Below, one piece after another: positions 2,981 through 15,772 of a DNA stretch of 15,772 nucleotides (position 1 is the stretch's first letter; each line of letters begins with the position of its first letter). The stretch is from assembly GCA_029335935.2 (NCBI GenBank), contig JARJMV020000079.1:1-15772 (forward strand). Reading direction: 5' to 3'. Under the pieces are notes generated by a model. That model was not told the DNA's origin and did not search any database. It was given only the letters and a program-made list of their open reading frames with translations. The stretch comes from a bacterium. GTDB taxonomy: Bacteria; Armatimonadota; Fimbriimonadia; Fimbriimonadales; GBS-DC. Made by a program: the position numbers and the translations under genes.

Positions 2981-5900
2981 GTGATACGACGATGGCAGGT
3001 GACACTGGCGGGGCTTCTACTGGCGTGGGCAGGCTACGCCCAAAACGGCGGTGAGACCACTCAAGACGCCTATCGCGACCGCCCCGGGCGCCATATTTTG
3101 CCGAACGCGCGGGTGAAGGAGATACCGCCTCAGAACTATCGCGTCGCGCCCTCGCGCGCGCCTCAAGATGCAACGCAAACGCGCTGGCGTAAAGGCGGGC
3201 TTTTTGACCCTCAACAGTTCCGCCAGCAACTCGAACAGCGTCAGCAACGCACCCGAAGCGTGCGCTGGGATACCGACATCACCAACGCCGCCCCCGACGA
3301 GATGCACCCCATCTACAATCCGGGCGCGTCCAAAGTCTACTTCTCCAGCAACGCGGGGAGCGTTGGGCAAGACGGACGGCTGGTGAACCCCACCCCACGC
3401 TACCGCATCTGGCGCGGCGAGGTGGACGAAGGCTCCCAGCTCTACATCGGCAACCTGACAAACTTGACCCCCATCACTGGCGACACGCCCGACGAACAGT
3501 TCGGTAGCCAGATCCAGCCCACCATCAACGCCGCCGCGAACATCATCGCCTACGCCAACCGCAGCGCGGCAGGCAGCTACAACATCGTCGTGCGCAACCT
3601 CACCACCGGACAACGCACATCGCTCACCACCGACAACAACGGCGTCACGCAGAACCTCCGACCCACGCTTAGCCCCGGCGGCAACTTGGTGGTGTTCGCG
3701 TCTAACCGTCTGGAAGTGACCGAAACGCCCGCCGACCGACGCTACCGACTCTACTTGGCGCGTACCGACGGGCGACCATTCGAAGATGGAACCTTCTTCC
3801 GACGCATCACCTTCCCCGATCCTGGCGAGAACGATGTCGAACCTGCCTGGTCGCCTGACGGCAACCGCATCGCCTTCGCACGAATCGCCGCCGACGGCAG
3901 CAGCTATATCTTCGTGCTCGATTTTAATACACTCACGGCGGTTCAGTGGACGAACTTTGTGGACGCGAATGGCAACCGCCCACGCGACCGCCAGCCCGCA
4001 TGGACTCAGATTGGCAATACACCCGTGCTGCTGTTCGCCTCCACCCGCAAATCGGGACAACCGCATCAGATTGGGCAACCCGCTGATCGCGTGGATGTAA
4101 CAAATAACATCTACGATATCTACCGCGTGGCGGCAGTGCTGCCTGAACCGCTCGGCGGAGATGTGATTGCCCTGACGGCAGACCCCAGTACCGCCGCCCA
4201 AGCACAACCTGATGTGCCTGGTGTGAGCTTCTACGCACCCGCCGCAGGCGCAAAGTACCCCACAGGCGCCATCAACGAGCGCAATCGTGTCGCCTATCAC
4301 TCCACCCGCACCCAAGGCGCAGAACCGCCCGGACCTGGTATCCACGACCTGTGGGAAACCCGCGTGTTCGATCTGACGCCGCCTGTGGTGGAAGTGCTGC
4401 CCATCGTCAGCCCCAAAGAATCGTTCCCAGGCGACACCGTCACCATTAAAGTGCGCGCCGTAGACCTGCAAAGCGGCGTGAACTTCGTGCGTGTGCAGTT
4501 CAAAGACCCCGACAGCGCCGAGCAAGACGCCGAAGGTCTGGAGCACCGCCTCTATCAGCTGTTCCAGTTCGACATCTTCTTCCCGAACCGTATCTTGGTG
4601 GGGCAGGGCCAGGCGTATGTGCCGCTGTTTGTGGAAGTGGGGCAACAGGCCATCCATCCCCAGACCTACGAATACAAAGACCCCTACAGCTTGGTACGCT
4701 TGGGCTTCAGCGGCAGCTTAGACGACACACTGCTGCTGCAGCCCGAGCTGGATGCGAACGGCAACCCCACCGACTGGTATGTCGCCACTTGGCGCACGCC
4801 CGATGTGCCCAGCGACTTCTATCTCGATGTGATTGTGCGCGACAACGCGGGCAACGAGTTCATCTACGATAACATCACGGGCTTCACAACCCAGCAGTTC
4901 ACGGGTTCCCACGATATCTTGCTGGTATCGGACTACATGGGCGGTCAGATTTTCGTGCAGAACCGCATCGACGCGATTGGCAACTCCATCACGCGCCCCA
5001 CTTGGCAGCCTGTGGAGAGCTACTGGACGGATAACCCGACAGGGAAGCCGCCGTTCGACCAGACGCAGCCGCCAAGCGGCAGCCCGCTCATCATTCATGG
5101 CGACGGCGCGCTGCCGCATCCGAACCTGCCGCCCGGCTTTTTCATCCGCTCCGACACGCTGGGGCAGAACACCACCTACGGCAGCCTCTACAACATCTGG
5201 CGCGTGCAGTGCCGCAACCCGATTACGCCGTCCGTGCTGGCAGGCTACCTCCCGCGCCTCGAACGCGAGCCGACCGATCTGCAAGGCAATAGCCGCCAAA
5301 AACTCCATTCCCCCCGAATCATCGTCTGGGGTAGCCCCTACGCAGGCAATGTGTGGGCAGGACCAGGACACATTCTTGACCCCGAAATCCAGACGCTGAT
5401 TCGCACCTTCCTGCAAGGTAGTGGGCGCATGGTGTTCAGCGGTCAGGATATCGCCTGGGCGCTCAGCTTGCGTGGCGCGGTGGCAAACCAGTTCCTCAAC
5501 GACATTCTGCGCGTGTCGTTTGATAGCGACTCGGCCGACGATGTGTTCCTGACGCCTTATCAAGGGTTGCGCCACATCGTACAAGGTGTGCCTGCGCCTG
5601 GCGGCGAAGACCCCAACCCGATTGCTGACAACCCTGGCGGGCTTGCCGTCTGGTTCCGCTTCGAGGGCAACGCGCGTCAGGTGGACCAACCGCAAGAGCT
5701 TCGCCTGTCGCACCCTGCCGCCTACATCGTGTTCCCGACCTTCGACAATTTTGATGTGATCCCGCCTGTAGGTGCGGGTACTGGTCCGCTCTACACCGAC
5801 GCCGCATGGAACCAGGTGTGGATTGACACCGTTACCGTTAGCCCCACTGCCCGCGCAGTCTACCGCTATACGCAGCCACGCTCACTGGGCGGCGCACTGT

Positions 5901-8488
5901 TGGGCACTTCCGACCAAGCAGGCTCTTATTATGCCGATTCGGCGACCCGCTCCAAGTTGGCGTTCGTTGCTTTCGGTGTAGAGGGCGTCAACTCGGCGTA
6001 CAACGACGGCCCTACGATTGGTGGTCAGGGTACTCTGTGGTGCCGCGCCTACCGCAACAAAATCATCCACAACGCCTTCGGTTGGATGACCCACAATGTG
6101 CTGGTGGGGCAGGTGCGCCAGTACGACCCCGATACCCGCACCTACACACCACTGCCCCGTGCGCTCGTGCGTGTGATTGGTATCGCGCCGATTAGCATCG
6201 CAGGAGTAGACGCGGGCTATGCGATTACCGATTCGAACGGGTTGTATCGCGTGGTAGGGCTGGAGGCAGGCGTCTATCTGGTGGACGCAGAGCGACCGGG
6301 CTTCAAAACCCAGCACCCAGAAACCGTCGTCCTGTTCAGCAACGGCGACAACAACCCCGTGACAATCAATCTACTTATGCTCGCCACGCCGCCAGGACAG
6401 ATTAGCGGTCGGGTGATCGATATCAACAATCAACCTGTGCGCGGCGCGGTCGTGCGCGCGACCAACACGACCGACCCCGACCTCACGCGCGAAGTGTTCA
6501 CCGACCCCGACGGCAATTTCCTCATGCCGCGCGTGCCTGTCGGAACATGGGATGTGACGGTGGTAAGCCTTTCGTTTGGCGGCTACATCCTGCCGCCTGC
6601 CCAACCCACGCCTGACGGCGTGTACCGCGATGTACAGGTGCAGCCCGGACAGACCACCAATGTCGGCGACTTCGTGCTGGAGCCTGAACCGGGCACAGTG
6701 ACAGGTACAGTGACCGACGCCAATACGGGGCAACCTATCCCCAACGCGCGCGTTCGGGCAGTTGCAGGCACAACCACGCGCGCCGATGTGACCACCGACG
6801 CTAACGGACAATATACTTTCAGTGTGCCTGCAGGCGAATATATCATCACTGCGGTTGCACCGGGCTACGCACCTGAGAGCCAGACGCTGAATGTGCCCGC
6901 GAACCAGACCACCACGCTCAACTTCCAGCTGACGCTGCTGCCGCCCGGCTCGGCATCGGGCAGAATCACGCGACGCTTCGGCGGTGCGCCCGAACCGAAC
7001 GCCACCGTTGAACTGCGCTTTGGCGCGGTGGTGGTGCAAACAACGACAACCGACGCGAACGGCGACTACAGCTTCTCCAGCGTGCCGCCTGGCGAGTATA
7101 CCGTCGTGCCCAGCAAGTCGGGATTCACCTTCACACCCAACCAGCGCACGATCACCATCACCTCGAGCCAGAACACCGTCATCGGCGAGTTCAAGTCGGA
7201 GCCGTTGCGCACCTTCTTCCGCGGGCGGTTCTTAGTGTCTGCGCCGTATGACTACACGCAAGATATCCAGACGCTGCTGAGCGTGCCCGCGAGCGCAAAC
7301 TTCCGATTCTTTAGCTGGGATCCGAGCGCGACGCGCTATGTGTTCTACCCGAACGCGCCCGCCAATCGGTTCGAACTCGGACGCGGCTACTTCTTGGAGA
7401 CTTCGGTCGACCTGCCGCTCTCCATTCAAGGCACACCTGCCAACACGAGCCAGCCGTTCCAAATCCCGCTGCAGGTCGGGTGGAACCTGATTGGCAACCC
7501 GTTCACCTTCGATGTGAACTGGAGCGCAGTGCAGCTCATCGATCCCGATACGAACACGGCAATCCCGCTGTCAACTGCAGTGGGCAGGGGCATCGTGGCG
7601 AATGCGCTGTGGGGCTACTCGTTCGGCGCGTACACAGCGACCACGCGCATGAAGGTGTGGGAAGGCTACTGGGTCTATGCCTACCGCGCGACCACGTTGA
7701 TTATTCCGCCCAGCGCCGCCGCGACCACTGCGCTCGGACGCAGCGTCAGCAACCATGCAGGCGAGTGGCGACTGACGCTGGAAGTCGAATCGGGCGAGCT
7801 GCGCGACCGCGCTTATGTGGGCGTCTCACGCGCGGCGACGCACAGCTACGACAGCAACCACGACCTGCTGAAGCCGCCGCCCGTCGGTGCTGAGTATGTC
7901 CACATCAGCCTGCCGCGCCTCGCATGGGGCGAGCAGAGCGGACTCTACGGCGTGGATATCCAGCCCGCCACGCGCAGCGCCAGCTGGGAGTTCACTGTGG
8001 AGACCAGCCAGCCCAACCGCGAGGCGACCTTGCGCTGGCCCGATATGCAACAGCTGCCGCGTACGGCGAACCTCGTGCTGGTGAACCTCGACACGGGCGA
8101 GCGACGCTACCTGCGCACGACAGGCGCGTACACCTTCCGCACAGGCGCCACTGGCGTGAGCCGATTCCGACTCGAAATGGCGCACAGCAGCGGGCTACTA
8201 CGCATCCAGCAAGTGCAGGTGAGCTCTGGACGCGGCAATCAGCACACCATCGCGTTCCAACTGACAGGAGATGCGACCGTTCAGGTGAATATTCTGTCGG
8301 GCGGCAAGGTGGTGCGCCAACTGCTCAATCAGGCGACCCGTAGTGCAGGTGTGCAACAAGCCACGTGGGACGGACGCGACCAGAGCGGTGTGGCGCTGCC
8401 GCCAGGCGCATACACCATCGAGATTCGAGCCGTGAGTGAAGACGGTCAAGTCGCACGGGCGACCGCGCCGCTTATCCTCACGCGCTGA
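2981..8488 (+). CDS. Giant exported mosaic protein: beta-propeller, amidotransferase-like domain, carboxypeptidase-regulatory repeats, shared C-terminal module
   Basis: The product has 1835 residues and I do not recognise a named family. From the GTG start it has a signal peptide (basic IRR, hydrophobic core, likely cut after GYA at residue 20), so it is exported. Residues 97-400 hold TolB/WD40-like propeller repeats (for example EPAWSPDGNRIAFA at 287-300). Residues 468-630 look like Ig-type sandwiches. Residues 644-870 resemble a class I amidotransferase-like fold (ILLVSDY, IIVWGSP, then GSGRMVFSGQDIAW) with no nucleophilic Cys at the expected turn, so it is probably non-catalytic. Residues 1039-1405 hold four carboxypeptidase-regulatory repeats. 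Residues 1409-1835 form the C-terminal module shared with two downstream proteins, ending in a FlgD-like Ig domain. A structural, adhesive or surface role is likely. No enzyme activity can be assigned. Confidence 0.9.
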   Translation: MIRRWQVTLAGLLLAWAGYAQNGGETTQDAYRDRPGRHILPNARVKEIPPQNYRVAPSRAPQDATQTRWRKGGLFDPQQFRQQLEQRQQRTRSVRWDTDITNAAPDEMHPIYNPGASKVYFSSNAGSVGQDGRLVNPTPRYRIWRGEVDEGSQLYIGNLTNLTPITGDTPDEQFGSQIQPTINAAANIIAYANRSAAGSYNIVVRNLTTGQRTSLTTDNNGVTQNLRPTLSPGGNLVVFASNRLEVTETPADRRYRLYLARTDGRPFEDGTFFRRITFPDPGENDVEPAWSPDGNRIAFARIAADGSSYIFVLDFNTLTAVQWTNFVDANGNRPRDRQPAWTQIGNTPVLLFASTRKSGQPHQIGQPADRVDVTNNIYDIYRVAAVLPEPLGGDVIALTADPSTAAQAQPDVPGVSFYAPAAGAKYPTGAINERNRVAYHSTRTQGAEPPGPGIHDLWETRVFDLTPPVVEVLPIVSPKESFPGDTVTIKVRAVDLQSGVNFVRVQFKDPDSAEQDAEGLEHRLYQLFQFDIFFPNRILVGQGQAYVPLFVEVGQQAIHPQTYEYKDPYSLVRLGFSGSLDDTLLLQPELDANGNPTDWYVATWRTPDVPSDFYLDVIVRDNAGNEFIYDNITGFTTQQFTGSHDILLVSDYMGGQIFVQNRIDAIGNSITRPTWQPVESYWTDNPTGKPPFDQTQPPSGSPLIIHGDGALPHPNLPPGFFIRSDTLGQNTTYGSLYNIWRVQCRNPITPSVLAGYLPRLEREPTDLQGNSRQKLHSPRIIVWGSPYAGNVWAGPGHILDPEIQTLIRTFLQGSGRMVFSGQDIAWALSLRGAVANQFLNDILRVSFDSDSADDVFLTPYQGLRHIVQGVPAPGGEDPNPIADNPGGLAVWFRFEGNARQVDQPQELRLSHPAAYIVFPTFDNFDVIPPVGAGTGPLYTDAAWNQVWIDTVTVSPTARAVYRYTQPRSLGGALLGTSDQAGSYYADSATRSKLAFVAFGVEGVNSAYNDGPTIGGQGTLWCRAYRNKIIHNAFGWMTHNVLVGQVRQYDPDTRTYTPLPRALVRVIGIAPISIAGVDAGYAITDSNGLYRVVGLEAGVYLVDAERPGFKTQHPETVVLFSNGDNNPVTINLLMLATPPGQISGRVIDINNQPVRGAVVRATNTTDPDLTREVFTDPDGNFLMPRVPVGTWDVTVVSLSFGGYILPPAQPTPDGVYRDVQVQPGQTTNVGDFVLEPEPGTVTGTVTDANTGQPIPNARVRAVAGTTTRADVTTDANGQYTFSVPAGEYIITAVAPGYAPESQTLNVPANQTTTLNFQLTLLPPGSASGRITRRFGGAPEPNATVELRFGAVVVQTTTTDANGDYSFSSVPPGEYTVVPSKSGFTFTPNQRTITITSSQNTVIGEFKSEPLRTFFRGRFLVSAPYDYTQDIQTLLSVPASANFRFFSWDPSATRYVFYPNAPANRFELGRGYFLETSVDLPLSIQGTPANTSQPFQIPLQVGWNLIGNPFTFDVNWSAVQLIDPDTNTAIPLSTAVGRGIVANALWGYSFGAYTATTRMKVWEGYWVYAYRATTLIIPPSAAATTALGRSVSNHAGEWRLTLEVESGELRDRAYVGVSRAATHSYDSNHDLLKPPPVGAEYVHISLPRLAWGEQSGLYGVDIQPATRSASWEFTVETSQPNREATLRWPDMQQLPRTANLVLVNLDTGERRYLRTTGAYTFRTGATGVSRFRLEMAHSSGLLRIQQVQVSSGRGNQHTIAFQLTGDATVQVNILSGGKVVRQLLNQATRSAGVQQATWDGRDQSGVALPPGAYTIEIRAVSEDGQVARATAPLILTR
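6095..7195 (+). repeat. Four tandem carboxypeptidase-regulatory-like (CarboxypepD_reg) protein repeats
   Basis: Residues 1039-1132, 1139-1234, 1238-1318 and 1323-1405 of the giant protein are tandem copies of one beta-sandwich of about 80-95 residues. Each has an opening GxV/GRV/GTV strand, a small-residue turn (PIPNARV, PVRGAVV), a TDxxGxY or TDPDGNF hairpin and a closing P/AG-x-Y element. In known families this fold acts as a rigid spacer or a sugar-binding or adhesive unit. The copies have diverged in protein and DNA, so they are old domain duplications and not a recent DNA repeat. Confidence 0.8.
7205..8485 (+). repeat. Shared C-terminal module, copy 1
   Basis: This is one of three diverged copies in the window. 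Part (a), residues 1409-1577, holds GWNLIGNPF at 1500-1508 and closes with GYWVYAYRATTLIIPP. Part (b), residues 1595-1733, opens EWRLTLEV, contains DLLKPPP at 1628-1634 and ends with ATLRWP, LPRT, LDTGER and a YTFR strand. Part (c), residues 1738-1835, is a FlgD-type Ig domain with AGVQQATWDGRD and LPPGAYTIEI, ending PLILTR at the very C terminus. Confidence 0.8.
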
Positions 8489-8500
8489 GGCACACTATGA

Positions 8501-8506
8501 AGGAGG
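8501..8506 (+). promoter_or_regulatory. Ribosome-binding site that sets the GTG start at 8517
   Basis: AGGAGG lies 10 bases before the GTG at 8517. The reading frame extends upstream to 8436, overlapping the previous gene, but the added residues are polar and precede the signal peptide. An ATG at 8529 is also in frame but lies 22 bases from the site. GTG at 8517 is therefore the best start. Confidence 0.75.
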
Positions 8507-8516
8507 AGCAATCAGG

Positions 8517-10289
8517 GTGAAAACACGGATGAGACGAACTTGGACAACGCGCACAGCGTATCTTGGAGTGATGAGTATGCTCGCGGTGGGGCTGCTCTAC
8601 CCACTGGGCGCTGCGCGCGCCTACGCCCAACTGGTGCAACTGCCACGCATCGCGGTGCTGGACTTCGCCAATAAAAGCGGCTACGGCGGCGCAAGCATCG
8701 CACGCGCCGCCACCGACGCCGTCGCAAGCGAATATCAGAAGTCAGGTAAGTTCGAAGTGCTGGCGCGCGGCGAGGTCGACCAACAACTCAAAGACTTAGA
8801 CCTCGCACTCCCCTTAGACCGCACAGGCTTCCTGCGACTGGGACGCGCTCTGCAAACCGAATCGCTCATCACGGGCGAGGTGAACGCCGTCACCTTCGTG
8901 GGCAATCCGAAACAAGCGCAGGTGGTGCTCACGGTGCGTGTCATCGACATCGCTTCGGGCGAACCTATCAACGGCGCGGTGGCGACAGGCTTTAGCAATC
9001 GCCGTCCAGGCTACACGGGCGACGACGACACGCTGGTGCAAGAGGCAATCCGCAACGCCGCCTTCGAAGCCGTGCGCTCCATTCAAAACTACACGATTCC
9101 TGAAGCCACCATTCTCACCACGCGCGCGGGCAAGGAAGTGCTGCTCAATCGCGGCATTCGCGGCGGATTGCAGCCCGGCATGGAGATGATTGTCGTGCGT
9201 CGCGGCGAGGAAGTAGGGCGCATCCGCATCACCCAAGTCTCCGATAGCGACGCGGTAGGCGAGATTATCGACTTCGGGCGCGGTATCCAGAGCGAAGACC
9301 GCGCACGCGCCATCTTCCGCGTGCCCACCGTGGAAGTGCGCGCTGGCAAAGTTCGCACCGAAACACCGCGCCGACCTGGCGAAGGTAATAAACTCCTGCG
9401 CGCATTAGGACCCATCCTCATCATCGGTCTGATTGCCTTCGGCGTGGCGCGCGCCTCCTCCGGCGGCAATACCCCCGTGCAGTCTTTACTCGCGGAAGCA
9501 GGCGCAGACAGCAACTTCGAACCTTATGTGCGTATCTCATGGAAAACCACTCTGTTCGCAAAAAGCGCATCCGATACGATTCAGTGGCAGATCTATCGCT
9601 CGGACTTCATCGGCACGGACGGCAATGGCAACTTGCGCCCTGTGGGTGTAACCCCCGGCAACCAGAACTTCTTCATCGATACCACAGTGCCGCGCACCTT
9701 CAGCTACGCCAGCCTGCCGCGTGAAGGCAGCGAAGACCCAGAATTCGATGAGCTGGAAGGCGCGCCCGGCGTTGCGTCAGGACGCTCCTACACCTACCAA
9801 ATCGCGTTGGTCTATCGCGAGCGTATCGATGTAGAAGGTTCACAGCTCATCCTGTTTAAGCTCTCCGATCGGGTGCGCTCGGGTCAGGCGACCGTCTTGC
9901 AGCCGGTGCAACTGTTGACGCCTGTGCAGCGCAGCGAGGATGTAGACCCCAAAGATGTGCGCTTTAGTTGGCTATCGACGGAGGGTGCGAACGCCTATCG
10001 TGTGCAAGTCTCAACCGACCCAACCTTCCCCAGAGATCGCACCTTCGTCTCTAACGAGATACTGACGACGATAGCAGGCGGCTCGCCTCTATCTACCGAT
10101 CGAATCAATCTGGAGACCGCGTTGCTGAACCGCTTGGGATTGGTGGGGCAGCGCGTGCCTCTCTACTGGCGTGTGGGCGCACGCAACTTGGGCGATAGTC
10201 CGGGGCCTGTGCCCGACAACAGTGGCTTGCGCTATGTGTGGAGTCGCCCCTTCGAGTTCACCACGCAAGAGCTGCCGCCCAGCCCGTAA
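8517..10289 (+). CDS. CsgG/FlgT-like envelope protein with internal membrane segment and C-terminal Fn3-like domains
   Basis: The 590-residue product begins with a long signal peptide (RMRR, then a hydrophobic core, likely cut after AYA at 37). Residues 43-190 resemble the CsgG/LpoB-type alpha/beta domain: IAVLDFANKS, then a helix rich in Ala, FEVLARGEVDQQL, LITGEVNAV and VVLTVRVIDIASGEPI. Residues 196-267 resemble the C-terminal beta domain of FlgT (EVLLNRGIRGGLQPGMEMIV). Residues 294-310 form a hydrophobic, probably membrane-spanning helix, and residues 336-450 and 466-585 look like two fibronectin-III-type sandwiches. CsgG forms an outer-membrane export pore in curli systems, and relatives assist envelope machines. 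Here no lipobox Cys is visible and the internal helix is unusual, so pore formation is not shown. The gene lies 28 bases after a gene for an exported giant protein and 82 bases before a protease carrying the same tail. Confidence 0.8.
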   Translation: MKTRMRRTWTTRTAYLGVMSMLAVGLLYPLGAARAYAQLVQLPRIAVLDFANKSGYGGASIARAATDAVASEYQKSGKFEVLARGEVDQQLKDLDLALPLDRTGFLRLGRALQTESLITGEVNAVTFVGNPKQAQVVLTVRVIDIASGEPINGAVATGFSNRRPGYTGDDDTLVQEAIRNAAFEAVRSIQNYTIPEATILTTRAGKEVLLNRGIRGGLQPGMEMIVVRRGEEVGRIRITQVSDSDAVGEIIDFGRGIQSEDRARAIFRVPTVEVRAGKVRTETPRRPGEGNKLLRALGPILIIGLIAFGVARASSGGNTPVQSLLAEAGADSNFEPYVRISWKTTLFAKSASDTIQWQIYRSDFIGTDGNGNLRPVGVTPGNQNFFIDTTVPRTFSYASLPREGSEDPEFDELEGAPGVASGRSYTYQIALVYRERIDVEGSQLILFKLSDRVRSGQATVLQPVQLLTPVQRSEDVDPKDVRFSWLSTEGANAYRVQVSTDPTFPRDRTFVSNEILTTIAGGSPLSTDRINLETALLNRLGLVGQRVPLYWRVGARNLGDSPGPVPDNSGLRYVWSRPFEFTTQELPPSP

Positions 10290-10299
10290 AGGGTTCTAT

Positions 10300-10327
10300 C
10301 GGGGCGCAGCATGAAACCTGCGCCCCG
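10300..10327 (+). terminator. Perfect 10-bp intergenic hairpin, possible terminator or processing site
   Basis: Bases 10300-10309 (CGGGGCGCAG) pair perfectly with 10318-10327 across an 8-base loop. The structure starts 11 bases after the stop codon of the CsgG-like gene. The stem is strong enough for a rho-independent terminator, but the downstream tract is weak (only a TCTTT at 10336-10340). It may terminate partially, protect the upstream mRNA 3' end, or separate the array into two expression units. Confidence 0.5.
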
Positions 10328-10371
10328 CCTATGCGTCTTTACTACTGGCAATTATCGGGAGGAGATAACCG

Positions 10372-13287
10372 ATGAAATGGATGTGGCGATGGTTCGTTGG
10401 AGTTGTAATGGCTGTCCACTGCGCGGGCGCACAAACGCTTACGCCCGACGATGTGGTACCCGGCGAGATGCTGGTGCGTCTCCACGCTGGTTCCACCGTC
10501 GACACAGCTAAAGCGCTCGCTGATCGCTACGGTCTCAGCGTGCGACCTATCGCAGTGACCGATACCTATGTCATGCGCTTCCCCCAGCAAAACGCGACTC
10601 CACAGCAGCTGCTGGATCGTGTGAACGAACTGGTCAAGCAGCTGGAGCGCGAGGCAAGTGTGAAATATGTAGAGCCGCACTGGCGGCTCAAACCGCTGGC
10701 GGTCCCCAACGATCCTCTCTTCGCTGAGCAGTGGGCGCTTCGCATGATGAAAGCCCCCGCTGCATGGGATACCGAGAAAGGTCAAGCAGGCATCCGAATT
10801 GCTATCATCGACGATAACTTCCTTCGCTCGCATCCAGACCTGCAAGCACGCTTTGACCCGCTCTCGCGCAACTTCGTAGCCGACCCACCCGACACCAACA
10901 TCGACCCTGAAGGTTCAGGATTCTCTCACGGAACAGCTGTGATGGGCGTCGCACTGGCAGCGACCGACAACGGCATCGGCATCGCAGGGCTCTGTTGGGA
11001 AGGTGTCACTGCAGTAGCGCTGAAAACGACTGCCTCGCCGTCGGGATTTCTTGATGGTCAAAACATTCTCGAGGCGTTCCAGTATGTCTTGGATAACGCC
11101 AACCAGATTGCCGTAGTGAACATGAGCTTCGGCGGCTACTTCCCATCCTCCCAAATGAACGATTTGATCCAGCGTATCTACCAAGCAGGCGTTGTGCTGG
11201 TGGGTGGCGCTGGCAACGACAATACCAACTTACCCTTCTATCCAGCCGACTTTAACAATGTGGTGAAGGTTTCGGCGGTGGGTCCGTCGGGTGCAAAAGC
11301 GTCCTACTCGAACTTTGGGAATGTCGATCTGGCGACCCCTGGCGGCGACCAGGAGAGCAACTTCAACGATGGCGTGCTGTCGACCGTTACTGGCTCAGCG
11401 CAATATGCCCCTGTGCAGGGTACCTCCTTTGCCTCGCCCTACGCGGCGGCGGCCGTGGCGCTACTGCTCTCCGCAGGGGTTCCGCGCCATACCGCTAACG
11501 ACGCCGAACCGCGCGCAGTGGTGGTGCTGAAAGAGACAGCTGACTCGCGCGGTCGCGCCGTACCCGACCCTGAACTGGGCTACGGTATTGTCGACTTGGA
11601 TCAAGCGCTGCGCGGCGTCGGCGGCGTGGGCGTCGCTTTCCTGCAGCCTGTGTCTGGCACAACTACCGACACGCGCATCGTGCGCGTGCAAGTGGTGGTG
11701 CGCCGCGTCTTAAACAACGATGTCGCCAACATCCTGAATGTGCGCCTCAATGGCGACCCGCTACCGCGCAGTGTGTGGGAGCCGAGCGCTGTAGTGAATG
11801 TCCAACAGAAGACGATTAGCCTCGATTTCAATGTTGCCCTGCCCGGTGAGGGACGCCATACGATTACCGTGGAAGCAACAGGGCAGGATGGCGTGGTTGG
11901 CAGCGGTTCTACCCGCGTGATTGCCAAAGCCTATGTGCTAAACGCAGGGTTAGCGATGTTCTCAGTGCCGTACAACATCACGCAGACGCCTGAAGAGATT
12001 TTCGGCAGTGAAGCGTTGCTGGCGCGCTACATCACTACCGAAGGCGCATACGCCCGCTACTCAGCGGCAAACCCCGACCCGCGCGCGAGCTTCAATCCGC
12101 CCGGCGCCGCAGTGCGACCCGACGGTTCTAATACCCCCACACCACCGCGCGGCTTGGGATACTTTGTGCGCAGCAACTCGCCCGCCTTCATCTTAGGCGA
12201 CCAATCAATCGATAACAATACCGCCTACCTCATCCCGCTCCAAGAAGGCTGGAACATGATTGGCAACCCGTTCCCGTTTAATGTGCCGTGGGCGGCGTGC
12301 GAAGTCGAAATCACGGGCGCGGGCGGTCAGCTACAACGCATCAGCTTGCAAGAAGCCGCCGAACGCGACTATATCCGCTTGCAAATCTATCGATTCATTC
12401 CGCTAACAGGCGAATACACTTGGCGCACCGCGCCGCTCGGCGAACTCATCGCCTGGCAAGGACACTGGGTGAAAGCGCTGAAGCCCTGCACGCTCGTGGT
12501 GCCCCCTGTCGGCGCGCTGCGTAGCCGCCCCGACGAGTCGCCGCGCGTCGTCCCTCAACAAACCGAGGGCTGGCTCCTCAGACTTGTGGCGCGTAGCGGC
12601 GACCGCGAAGACAGCAACACGCTCATCGGCGCCGCTTCCAACGCCAGCGACGACATCGGACGCGAAGATGTGGAGAAGCCCCCAGCGTTCAAGTCCTACC
12701 TGATGGTGCGAATCATCGACCAGCGCACCCGCTCTGCATTAGCGCAGGACATCCGACGCAACAGCCGACGCGCCCAACGCTGGGAACTGGAAGTCGCGAC
12801 CGACCAGCCCGAAGCAGAGGTGACTTTGCAGTGGACGCAAGAGCTGCCCCTGCCGCGCGGCACACGGCTCACGCTGATAGACCAGGCAACGGGCGAGCGG
12901 ATCTCGATGATCCACAACAGCGCGCATCGGTTCCGCACCGATGCGAATAGCCGTCGCCGATTCGTTATCGAGGCGCAGTCCACCCGAACCAGCCGCCTGC
13001 AGGTGACGAATGTGGCAGTGACGCAGACGCGCGGCAACCAGTTCTCCATTCAGTATGCACTCAACGGAGACGCTTCAGTGCAGGTGCTTGTCCAAGACGC
13101 AACGGGCAGGACGATTGCGCGTCTACAGAATGGAACGCGCTCGGCAGGCGTGAACACCGCTACTTGGAACGGGCGCAGCGACTCGGGCGTCGCCGTGCCG
13201 CCCGGCGCGTACCAACTGCAGATCGTCGCCACAGGCGACGATGGCGAAGTGGCGCGAGCGGTTCGACCGCTTATCGTGGCGCGATAA
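10372..13287 (+). CDS. Exported subtilisin-family (S8) serine protease with shared C-terminal module
   Basis: This is a 971-residue secreted endopeptidase. The signal peptide is likely cut after AGA (residue 20). Residues 28-120 form a fervidolysin-type propeptide (PGEMLVRL through PNDPLFAEQWAL). The catalytic domain spans about 125-415, with Asp147 in IAIIDDNF, His186 in FSHGTAVMG, oxyanion Asn282 in GGAGND and Ser352 in GTSFASPYAAA. The usual Asp-Thr-Gly around the catalytic Asp reads Asp-Asp-Asn, but all catalytic residues are present. Residues 425-520 look like an Ig-type linker domain. Residues 523-971 form the three-part C-terminal module shared with the neighbours. The ATG follows GGGAGGAG (10357-10364) with a 7-base spacer. 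Its substrate is unknown; processing of co-encoded surface proteins is a plausible inference, and general nutrient proteolysis is the alternative. Confidence 0.93.
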   Translation: MKWMWRWFVGVVMAVHCAGAQTLTPDDVVPGEMLVRLHAGSTVDTAKALADRYGLSVRPIAVTDTYVMRFPQQNATPQQLLDRVNELVKQLEREASVKYVEPHWRLKPLAVPNDPLFAEQWALRMMKAPAAWDTEKGQAGIRIAIIDDNFLRSHPDLQARFDPLSRNFVADPPDTNIDPEGSGFSHGTAVMGVALAATDNGIGIAGLCWEGVTAVALKTTASPSGFLDGQNILEAFQYVLDNANQIAVVNMSFGGYFPSSQMNDLIQRIYQAGVVLVGGAGNDNTNLPFYPADFNNVVKVSAVGPSGAKASYSNFGNVDLATPGGDQESNFNDGVLSTVTGSAQYAPVQGTSFASPYAAAAVALLLSAGVPRHTANDAEPRAVVVLKETADSRGRAVPDPELGYGIVDLDQALRGVGGVGVAFLQPVSGTTTDTRIVRVQVVVRRVLNNDVANILNVRLNGDPLPRSVWEPSAVVNVQQKTISLDFNVALPGEGRHTITVEATGQDGVVGSGSTRVIAKAYVLNAGLAMFSVPYNITQTPEEIFGSEALLARYITTEGAYARYSAANPDPRASFNPPGAAVRPDGSNTPTPPRGLGYFVRSNSPAFILGDQSIDNNTAYLIPLQEGWNMIGNPFPFNVPWAACEVEITGAGGQLQRISLQEAAERDYIRLQIYRFIPLTGEYTWRTAPLGELIAWQGHWVKALKPCTLVVPPVGALRSRPDESPRVVPQQTEGWLLRLVARSGDREDSNTLIGAASNASDDIGREDVEKPPAFKSYLMVRIIDQRTRSALAQDIRRNSRRAQRWELEVATDQPEAEVTLQWTQELPLPRGTRLTLIDQATGERISMIHNSAHRFRTDANSRRRFVIEAQSTRTSRLQVTNVAVTQTRGNQFSIQYALNGDASVQVLVQDATGRTIARLQNGTRSAGVNTATWNGRSDSGVAVPPGAYQLQIVATGDDGEVARAVRPLIVAR
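11938..13284 (+). repeat. Shared C-terminal module, copy 2
   Basis: In the protease, part (a) spans residues 523-712 with GWNMIGNPF at 626-634 and a closing GHWVKALKPCTLVVPP. Part (b), 732-870, opens GWLLRLVARSG, contains DVEKPP at 766-771, then VTLQW, LPRG, DQATGER and HRFR. Part (c), 874-971, is the FlgD-type Ig domain with SAGVNTATWNGRSDSG and VPPGAYQLQI, ending PLIVAR at the C terminus. Order and spacing match copy 1. Confidence 0.8.
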
Positions 13288-13307
13288 CCGAAGGAGGCAA
13301 ACGAATT

Positions 13308-15772
13308 ATGAGACGAAGCATCTTGACAACACTGAGTGCCCTAACGCTGAGCGCTACGCTCTGGGCGCAGGATTTCTATATTCCTGCCCCAGGTCAGCGA
13401 TGTGGGTGTCCCGATAATCAAAATCCCGTGAGCGATGACTACCTTGACCTTGAGGTGGACAACGGCGTGCTGGGCGCTGTGTTAGGTCTGAGCGGCACGG
13501 TCACTTGGCGCACGGGGTGCTTCCCCATAGAAAGCGCCCCATGCACCACACGACCCGCCGAGGGGAGCATTCAGCTGGGCACTTCGGGGGGCAACACCCT
13601 GCTTGGCGACGGCAGTATCGCAATGACCTCAGGCTATCCTTGGGGCGTGTACCCCGGCGGCATCTTCATCACGATGCAAGCCACGCGTGAAGGTCAAACC
13701 CAGACCTTTGTGTGGGGGCGCGAGGGCGGTCCGAACGTCATCTTTGAGCGTGCCTTTCGGGGCGCGAGTGGATTCTACATCCGACGCACTTGGAATGTGG
13801 AAGGCTGGGATACCGACTTGCGCATCGATCTAATCCAGTCGGTGGCGCGTATCAGCCTGCGCGTGCGCAATAACGGCGATACTCCCGCCAGCTTGGCGCT
13901 GCGACTGGCATCCGATGTGGAAGTCGGCGTCGAGGATGGCTTCAGCCGCAACGGCGCATCCCGCCCTCCTTATGTCTATCTACAAGGGCAACGCCCTGTG
14001 CGCACCGATGTCGACCTGCGCGGCACGCAGGTTCCTAACGCCATCGAATTCTATCTGGGGCGCGGCAACCTCGCAGGTTCCTCGCGCTATATCCTCCGAC
14101 CGATTCCGGGCTTCAACGACCAGACGCCCATCGACCGACTCGTGGTGGGGGACTGGTACTTCATACAGGGTACCACCATCTGGGAACCCACGCTCTTCCC
14201 AGATGTGTTCATTCGCGATGTCGCAATTAATCTGTTCGTGAATGCCCGTAATTTTGCTCCAGGTCAAGAACGAGAGTATGTGTTCTATGTCTCCCTGACA
14301 CCTGTGGATCTGGATGTGCAGCCGCCGATTGCGCTGGGTGTCGAGGCGCTGCCCGTCATCGAGCCGAACCGCGACGACCTCTCGCAACTCGCCAACAACG
14401 GCGCGTTCGATATCATCGCGAATGTCACCAATCAATACTTTATCGTGGGACGCGAGATCGACCTAACGAATGTCGCTGTCGACCTGTCGCTGCCTGCTGG
14501 AGTATCGCTCGCGCCAGGCGAGACCCGCTCCCGAACGATTGCGAGGCTTTCCCCTGGGCAAACAGCGCCCGTCCGATGGCGCGTAGTCGCCGACCCTGCA
14601 ACCGTGGGATTTGTCACTTTTCGCGTCTCGGTTCAAGCACCGCCGGCTCCCACGAAGTCGGTGGCGCGTACGATCCTTATCTCCGCGACAACGAATCGCA
14701 AGCTGGAGCGCGGTTTCCAAATCGTCTCGATACCGTTCACGGCAACAGGAACCCTGGACGAGGTTCTCAACCTCCCCGTGTCGTACCAAGCAAAGCGATG
14801 GAACCCTGAACGCGAGTTGTACGAGACCATCGATACCATACAACCCGGTCAAGGCTTTTGGCTCTTCTTGCCCGGAGATTCGTTCGTGGCTCAGTACGAC
14901 TCTGGCAGCTTACGCTTCCCCGATAGCGTGTTCGATACCAGTGTGCCCGTGCCGCTCAAGAAGGGCTGGAACCAGATTGGCAACCCCTACCCGTACCCGC
15001 TGGTGTTGGGGCAGGTGGTTGTGGTGCCGTCCAGCAATCCGAGGAATAGCTTGAGCTTTGCGGAGGCGGCAGGGCAGGGCGTTGTTCGTGGCGTGATTTA
15101 CTTCTGGGATGAGTTCACGGGCGAGTATAAGTTCACTTCGGACCCGAACACCCCCATCTTGCCTCATCGGGGCTACTGGATTAAGTGCGCCGAGGATGTG
15201 GAGTTTGTCTACCCGCCCGTGTTTCTGCCCGGCACGGGCTTCGGCGGCAACCTCACGCGCTCCGTGCAAGAGCGTCCGAACCTGCCCAACGATTGGCGAT
15301 TACAAATCGTGGCGCGCACCAGCCGCGGCGTGGATACCCAGAACTTCGTCGGGATGAGCAGTGGGCGTAGCGCAGGCGACATTGAAGAGCCGCCCACGCC
15401 GCTGCCCGAGCGCCCGGTCAACCTAACCATCCTGAAGTCGGGCACGGGCGCGCCGCTGATGCAAGAGATACGCCCGCTCGCCAACCGACAGCAGTTCGAC
15501 CTGCTGGTGGAAGCCGCGACTGGCGAAGAGGTGACGCTCATCTTCCCGAACCTGAACACCGTGCCGCAGGGCTACCGCCTGCGCCTGACCGACTTGAACA
15601 CAGGTCGCATGGTAGACCTGCGCTCGACGCCAGAGTATCGGTTCGTCTCCTCAGGGCGCACACGCCTGCAACTGACAGGAGAGCGCGCGACTCGCACGGG
15701 CGCGCTAATCTCTCTTGTGACTGTCGGCACGGCAGGACGCGGCGCAGGTAGCGTCTCCTTCTCCTATGTGAT
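13308..15772 (+). CDS. Large exported beta-rich protein with shared C-terminal module, 3' end outside window
   Basis: The frame is open from the ATG at 13308 to the right edge (821 codons, no stop), 20 bases after the protease gene. The start follows AAGGAGG (13291-13297) with a 10-base spacer. Residues 1-20 are a signal peptide, likely cut after LWA. Residues 21-330 are an unrecognised beta-rich region with Cys at 32, 34, 71 and 79 that could form disulfides after export. Residues 333-460 resemble a CARDB- or NEW3-type Ig domain (IIANVTNQ, VDLSLPAGVSLAPGETR). From residue 466 the shared module begins, and the FlgD-type part is cut by the window end. By analogy with copies 1 and 2, about 75 more residues are expected. 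No enzymatic motif is visible; a structural or ligand-binding surface role is the best guess. Confidence 0.9.
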   Translation, partial: MRRSILTTLSALTLSATLWAQDFYIPAPGQRCGCPDNQNPVSDDYLDLEVDNGVLGAVLGLSGTVTWRTGCFPIESAPCTTRPAEGSIQLGTSGGNTLLGDGSIAMTSGYPWGVYPGGIFITMQATREGQTQTFVWGREGGPNVIFERAFRGASGFYIRRTWNVEGWDTDLRIDLIQSVARISLRVRNNGDTPASLALRLASDVEVGVEDGFSRNGASRPPYVYLQGQRPVRTDVDLRGTQVPNAIEFYLGRGNLAGSSRYILRPIPGFNDQTPIDRLVVGDWYFIQGTTIWEPTLFPDVFIRDVAINLFVNARNFAPGQEREYVFYVSLTPVDLDVQPPIALGVEALPVIEPNRDDLSQLANNGAFDIIANVTNQYFIVGREIDLTNVAVDLSLPAGVSLAPGETRSRTIARLSPGQTAPVRWRVVADPATVGFVTFRVSVQAPPAPTKSVARTILISATTNRKLERGFQIVSIPFTATGTLDEVLNLPVSYQAKRWNPERELYETIDTIQPGQGFWLFLPGDSFVAQYDSGSLRFPDSVFDTSVPVPLKKGWNQIGNPYPYPLVLGQVVVVPSSNPRNSLSFAEAAGQGVVRGVIYFWDEFTGEYKFTSDPNTPILPHRGYWIKCAEDVEFVYPPVFLPGTGFGGNLTRSVQERPNLPNDWRLQIVARTSRGVDTQNFVGMSSGRSAGDIEEPPTPLPERPVNLTILKSGTGAPLMQEIRPLANRQQFDLLVEAATGEEVTLIFPNLNTVPQGYRLRLTDLNTGRMVDLRSTPEYRFVSSGRTRLQLTGERATRTGALISLVTVGTAGRGAGSVSFSYV
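14703..15772 (+). repeat. Shared C-terminal module, copy 3 (truncated by window edge)
   Basis: Part (a), residues 466-640, has GWNQIGNPY at 553-561 and a closing RGYWIKCAEDVEFVYPP. Part (b), 661-790, opens DWRLQIVAR, contains DIEEPP at 691-696, then EVTLIFPNL, VPQG, LNTGR and an EYRF strand. Part (c) starts near residue 798 and only its first strands are visible (GRGAGSVSFSYV). The same order as copies 1 and 2 supports common descent. Confidence 0.78.

What the first reader, a model, noticed from the sequence alone, without database searches (positions are those of the whole stretch)
7205..15772. A common three-part C-terminal module on three neighbouring exported proteins with unrelated N-terminal halves
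Seen: copies at 7205-8485, 11938-13284 and 14703-15772 share order, spacing and motifs: GWN-x-IGNP-F/Y, then D-[ILV]-x-[KE]-P-P, then a T/S-L-x-W/F strand with DxxTGxR. The two complete copies end in a FlgD-like Ig domain with AGV-x-x-ATW-x-GR and PPGAY, finishing PLI-x-x-R. Known: type IX secretion cargo in Bacteroidota carries a C-terminal sandwich used as an export and anchoring signal, and FlgD-type Ig tails are used similarly in some other phyla. Inference: this module may be a sorting or surface-attachment tag of a secretion route not described for this lineage. The N-terminal halves differ completely while the tail is kept, as expected of a tag and not of a catalytic part.
Basis: partly seen in the sequence, partly recalled or inferred. 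Interest (0 to 1): 0.75.

Follow-up and report, generated by a model that had tools for sequence, protein, structure and literature searches.

The report
Secretion tails without their secretion machine
Neighbouring, predicted-exported proteins in this bacterium end in the same C-terminal module that is found on type IX secretion cargo in Bacteroidota and related phyla, yet no gene for the type IX channel was detected in any of 291 genomes searched from its phylum, so the tail is likely read by an undescribed outer-membrane sorting route.

Summary
P1, P3 and P4 share a C-terminal module of about 430 residues (blastp 3e-58, 2e-26, 1e-19): two beta domains (D1, D2) and a FlgD-type Ig domain (D3). 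The lineage is Fimbriimonadales, Armatimonadota. The module occurs in 40 of 41 genomes of the order and 274 of 291 of the phylum. In 117 of 117 full-length hits it ends within 15 residues of the C terminus; 84 of the 85 hits nearest the window end in Arg. The same module lies on named Calditrichia, Ignavibacteriae, Bacteroidetes, Zixibacteriota and Marinimicrobia proteins; 6 of 7 pass the T9SS type A sorting model, the window's copies do not. SprA: 11 of 12 named tail-bearing genomes of other phyla, 0 of 291 Armatimonadota. PorV: 12 of 12 against 0 of 32. The genes form a conserved locus with a predicted LptD-like barrel. Against a tag: few clients, losses of D3, no tail swapping. Best reading: a type-IX-type tail used for outer-membrane sorting or retention without T9SS; the mechanism is inferred.

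The parts
2981..8488 (+). P1: predicted exported protein, PD40 and CarboxypepD_reg domains, C-terminal module (GTG start at 2981 behind GGAAGAGGAGG)
7211..8485 (+). Module copy 1 (D1-D2-D3) of P1; FlgD_ig match 8225-8440
8517..10289 (+). P2: predicted exported protein with sub-cut-off CsgG/TolB_N matches; no module
10372..13287 (+). P3: subtilase (Peptidase_S8; Asp147, His186, Ser352) with C-terminal module
11938..13284 (+). Module copy 2 (D1-D2-D3) of P3
12982..13284 (+). D3 of P3: Ig domain (model residues 352-452 of 11929-13284), FlgD_ig 13024-13239, last residue Arg
13308..15770 (+). P4: predicted exported protein, cut by the contig end; N half of unknown family
14703..15770 (+). Module copy 3 of P4: D1 and D2, D3 only begun

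Best explanation
Three neighbouring, predicted-exported Armatimonadota proteins end in a module homologous to that on type IX secretion cargo, in a phylum where no type IX translocon was detected, and this tail is likely a sorting and retention signal that would be read at the outer membrane by a different, locus-encoded apparatus. Shown by calls: the module D1-D2-D3; its extreme C-terminal position and near-invariant last Arg; its sequence continuity with named FCB-type proteins whose D3 passes the T9SS type A model; no detectable SprA or PorV and no PorU-sized C25 peptidase in the genomes searched; a conserved locus P1-P2-P3-P4-P5-P6. Predicted: Sec export, an active subtilase P3, and P6 as an LptD-type barrel. 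Inferred and untested: the last strands of D3 with the terminal Arg are recognised after Sec export; P2 and P5 (CsgG/LpoB-like by weak matches) and P6 are the candidate apparatus; P3, itself tailed, is the candidate processing protease in the place that PorU holds in T9SS; D1-D2 is a spacer or binding unit that stays useful where D3 is lost.
Confidence: 0.43

Rival explanations
1. The module is a structural C-terminal cap (stacked beta domains, perhaps binding a partner or glycan) of a small, ancient set of Sec-exported envelope proteins; it carries no sorting information here, and the likeness to T9SS cargo is shared ancestry of an Ig tail.
For: Few clients, stable pairing of tail and N half, D3 lost from some orthologues while D1-D2 stay, no T9SS.
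Against: A near-invariant last residue (84 of 85, 45 of 46) and the lack of any extension are not expected of a mere cap; loss of D3 from all three locus proteins in one genome looks shared.
Confidence: 0.37
2. Armatimonadota have a strongly diverged T9SS whose translocon and partners the profiles miss.
For: The tail is homologous to T9SS cargo tails; C25 peptidase domains occur in 3 of 32 order genomes.
Against: The same SprA profile still finds Zixibacteriota (4e-16), Cloacimonetes (6e-11) and Gemmatimonadota (1e-44) proteins but 0 of 291 Armatimonadota, 194 of them at least 90% complete and at most 5% contaminated; PorV 0 of 32 against 12 of 12. The C25 hits in order genomes lie in frames of 558-875 aa, the best control hits in frames of 1,134-1,733 aa. 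Motor and ring genes (PorK, PorL, PorM, PorN) were not searched.
Confidence: 0.12

Closest known systems
T9SS type A cargo tail (TIGR04183 / PF18962)
   Same: Extreme C-terminal Ig sandwich on signal-peptide-like proteins, same preceding D1-D2 in named FCB-type proteins, basic last residue.
   Different: Window copies are below the TIGR04183 cut-off; no SprA, PorV or PorU-sized C25 peptidase detected; few clients.
FlgD Ig-like domain (PF13860)
   Same: D3 passes the Pfam cut-off.
   Different: Not a FlgD hook cap: all FlgD equivalog models are far below cut-off (at best 42.7 of 230 bits) and the rest of the protein is unrelated.
PorU, the T9SS sortase
   Different: P3 is a subtilase, not a C25 peptidase; no sortase function shown.
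LptD (for the neighbour P6)
   Same: Predicted jellyroll and barrel; Foldseek ranks 1-13 are LptD/LptDE entries by title, save 4q35, titled only a membrane protein.
   Different: Extra intimin/invasin-type Ig domain; no LptD family match; VIA-align puts other barrels (SAM-Mdm10 15.3, TonB receptors) level with or above LptDE at 13.7.

Membership tests
T9SS cargo, type A | C-terminal domain over the TIGR04183 cut-off | tested here: not met
   P3 14.0 bits against 23, P1 not listed; P4 cut. 6 of 7 named full-module relatives pass, L114 Flammeovirgaceae does not; 5 of 5 unnamed distant relatives pass, three of which I knew to carry PF18962.
T9SS cargo, type A | Tail at the extreme C terminus of the protein | tested here: met
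T9SS cargo, type A | N-terminal signal peptide | tested here: inconclusive
   Signal-like starts by eye in P1-P4; crude test 42 of 44 module ORFs against 106 of 190 controls. No trained predictor was available.
T9SS cargo, type A | Host encodes the SprA translocon | tested here: not met
   0 of 41 and 0 of 291; controls 11 of 12
T9SS cargo, type A | Host encodes PorV | tested here: not met
   0 of 32, controls 12 of 12
T9SS cargo, type A | Host encodes a PorU-type C25 sortase | tested here: not met
   Own genome none; 3 of 32 have C25 matches, in shorter frames; controls 12 of 12
T9SS cargo, type A | Tail cleaved, product anchored to LPS or released | not testable with these tools
   Needs proteomics
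FlgD_ig (PF13860) | D3 over the Pfam cut-off | tested here: met
   55.4 and 39.6 bits, cut-off 27
Subtilase S8 (P3) | Asp-His-Ser triad | tested here: met
LptD (neighbour P6) | LptD fold | tested here: inconclusive
   Foldseek best hits E 3e-15 to 7e-12, model pLDDT 78; VIA-align does not single LptD out
LptD (neighbour P6) | Match to a Pfam or NCBIfam LptD family | tested here: not met
   against PDB sequences LptD only E 0.1

The most novel reading that the evidence does not exclude
Armatimonadota run a type-IX-like but SprA-, PorV- and PorU-free sorting route: Sec-exported proteins ending in a T9SS-type Ig tail with an invariant terminal Arg are recognised at the outer membrane by a phylum-wide locus (CsgG/LpoB-like P2 and P5, LptD-like barrel P6) and processed by the tailed subtilase P3, which stands in for PorU and ties surface proteins to LPS delivery.
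Probability: 0.2. Interest if true: 0.87.

Novelty: new variant of a known kind. Interest (0 to 1): 0.62.

Why it matters
It parts the type IX tail from the type IX machine across a whole phylum. If the tail still sorts, there is a second and smaller way to use it, which bears on how such tails are recognised and how T9SS arose. If it does not, 'sorting domain' and FlgD-type annotations outside Bacteroidota need caution. Either way a conserved envelope locus in a little-studied phylum becomes a concrete target.

Tried and rejected
Chance likeness of the copies: rejected. Only these three paralogues: rejected. Canonical T9SS in this lineage: not detected; absence of motor and ring genes was not tested. 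FlgD hook cap: rejected. Missing D3 in G020 as a frameshift: rejected, since 132, 62 and 112 bp separate the three stops from the next ORF, and no frame printed there continues the domain. P6 as a dedicated protein exporter: weakened by its LptD-like fold, while lpxA, lpxB and lpxC pass their cut-offs in relative G014. VIA-align on P6 did not single out LptD. D1 and D2: no Pfam family in the window's copies, but they were not folded and searched alone, so no new fold is claimed. Promoter scan at the shuffle level, terminators below it. Paper searches on an Armatimonadota T9SS-type tail gave nothing on it (open-licence library only).

Full report
What is in the window. The window is one whole contig (C76) of a 2.03 Mb, 85.5%-complete assembly. 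On the + strand lie an amidohydrolase end, an S1-domain protein, a CoaE-like kinase and then P1, P2, P3 and P4, with gaps of about 28, 82 and 20 bp. Named homologues of P3 are Fimbriimonadales or Armatimonadetes.

Spread and position. The own genome has six profile places: three here, C139 (probably a variant of P4's end), C45 and C265. In the order 40 of 41 genomes match, 1-7 rows each; in the phylum 274 of 291. All 117 full-length protein hits of two searches end within 15 residues of the C terminus, 112 within 1. The last residue is Arg in 84 of the 85 hits nearest the window and in 45 of 46 locus ORFs (the exception has only weak fragments of the module), against 25 of 190 control ORFs; 32 distant hits end in Lys (13), Arg (13), His (3) or others.

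Link to type IX secretion. Full modules lie on named contigs of Calditrichia, Ignavibacteriae (two), Bacteroidetes, Zixibacteriota, Neomarinimicrobiota and Flammeovirgaceae (all seven reach the stop). Six of the seven pass the T9SS type A sorting model at 26.6-45.2 bits (cut-off 23); Flammeovirgaceae does not, and of the window's copies P3 scores 14.0 and P1 is not listed. SprA is found in 11 of 12 named genomes with the tail (the miss is a 1.0 Mb Marinimicrobia MAG; 5 of the 6 with the full module), 0 of 41 order genomes and 0 of 291 phylum genomes. PorV: 12 of 12 against 0 of 32. C25 peptidase: 12 of 12 against 3 of 32, in shorter frames.

The locus. In the order, f1, f2 and f4 genomes fetched have S1 gene-coaE-P1-P2-P3-P4-P5-P6 in whole or as far as the stretch reaches; f5 lacks P1; f3 lacks P1, P3 and P5. 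P6 has a module gene 85-888 bp upstream on the same strand in 40 of 40 order genomes. Outside the order, of seven genomes whose stretches were read, G083, G081 and G191 show P1-P2-P3-P4-large protein-P6, with P5 found in G083 and G191; G239 shows P2 to P6 without P1, G097 P1 to P4 and P6 without P5, G073 a P1-like piece, P2, P5 and P6, and G203 none of P2-P6 beside its module gene. By listed coordinates, 23 of 25 genomes outside the order have a module gene within 20 kb upstream of P6; in the two misses P6 lies at a contig edge. P6 matches in 278 of 291 genomes, including nine (families f22 and f23) without a module match. It is predicted as an intimin-like Ig domain, a jellyroll and a barrel, LptD by Foldseek, not singled out by VIA-align. 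Core LPS genes have been reported in Armatimonadetes (PMC5007114, passages), and lpxA, lpxB and lpxC pass their cut-offs in relative G014.

For and against a tag. For: exact C-terminal position and last Arg; homology to cargo whose last residues are the export signal in P. gingivalis (PMC4804311, passages); an intact protease in the locus; and loss of D3 from all locus proteins together in one genome. Against: few clients, D3 absent from 7 of 44 uncut module ORFs, no swapping of tails between families, and no localisation data. I put sorting or retention slightly above a structural cap.

Novelty. The tail is of a known kind; its phylum-wide setting without detected T9SS and its LptD-linked locus were not found in the paper searches made (listings; passages of six papers).

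Noticed in passing
Signal-peptide-like N termini of P1-P4 in the window; order loci L036-L048, L146-L155: Gln often follows the likely signal-peptide cleavage site (YA|Q, YA|Q, GA|Q, WA|Q in P1-P4), like the Bacteroidetes Q-rule (PMC5837995, passages). Crude counts: 24 of 64 in Fimbriimonadales loci, 10 of 45 other Armatimonadota, 12 of 22 Bacteroidota-type, 13 of 42 Ignavibacteria/Calditrichota, 7 of 39 other FCB-type loci; Gln is 3-4% overall. So the bias is not confined to Bacteroidota in this small, tail-centred sample.
   Followed up: partly
Named genomes behind L049, L050, L052, L104, L117, L125: SprA, PorV and C25 matches in Calditrichia, Ignavibacteriae, Zixibacteriota, Gemmatimonadota, Cloacimonetes and Caldithrix genomes, though T9SS is still called Bacteroidetes-specific in a review abstract (PMC7463736, listing).
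   Followed up: partly
L040 (G020:C4) 4216-9585, 11767-14457, 14520-17054: P1, P3 and P4 all end after D2, with no room for D3 before the next ORF, and no FlgD_ig match in that genome.
   Followed up: partly
L146, L147, L150, L155: A second module protein family (P0084-like) lies near a gene with weak LptA/LptC-like matches.
   Followed up: partly
G258: 46 FlgD_ig matches in one Armatimonadota genome: some families of the phylum use this tail type far more than the window's order.
   Followed up: no
window 15415-15770 against L004 1-356: The contig end overlaps contig C139 of the same assembly at 95.8% identity: probably strain variation that broke the assembly inside P4.
   Followed up: yes
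L004 (C139) and P6 homologues P0159-P0217: The LptD-like P6 carries an intimin/invasin-type Ig domain at its N terminus, an arrangement that I do not recall from described LptD proteins.
   Followed up: partly
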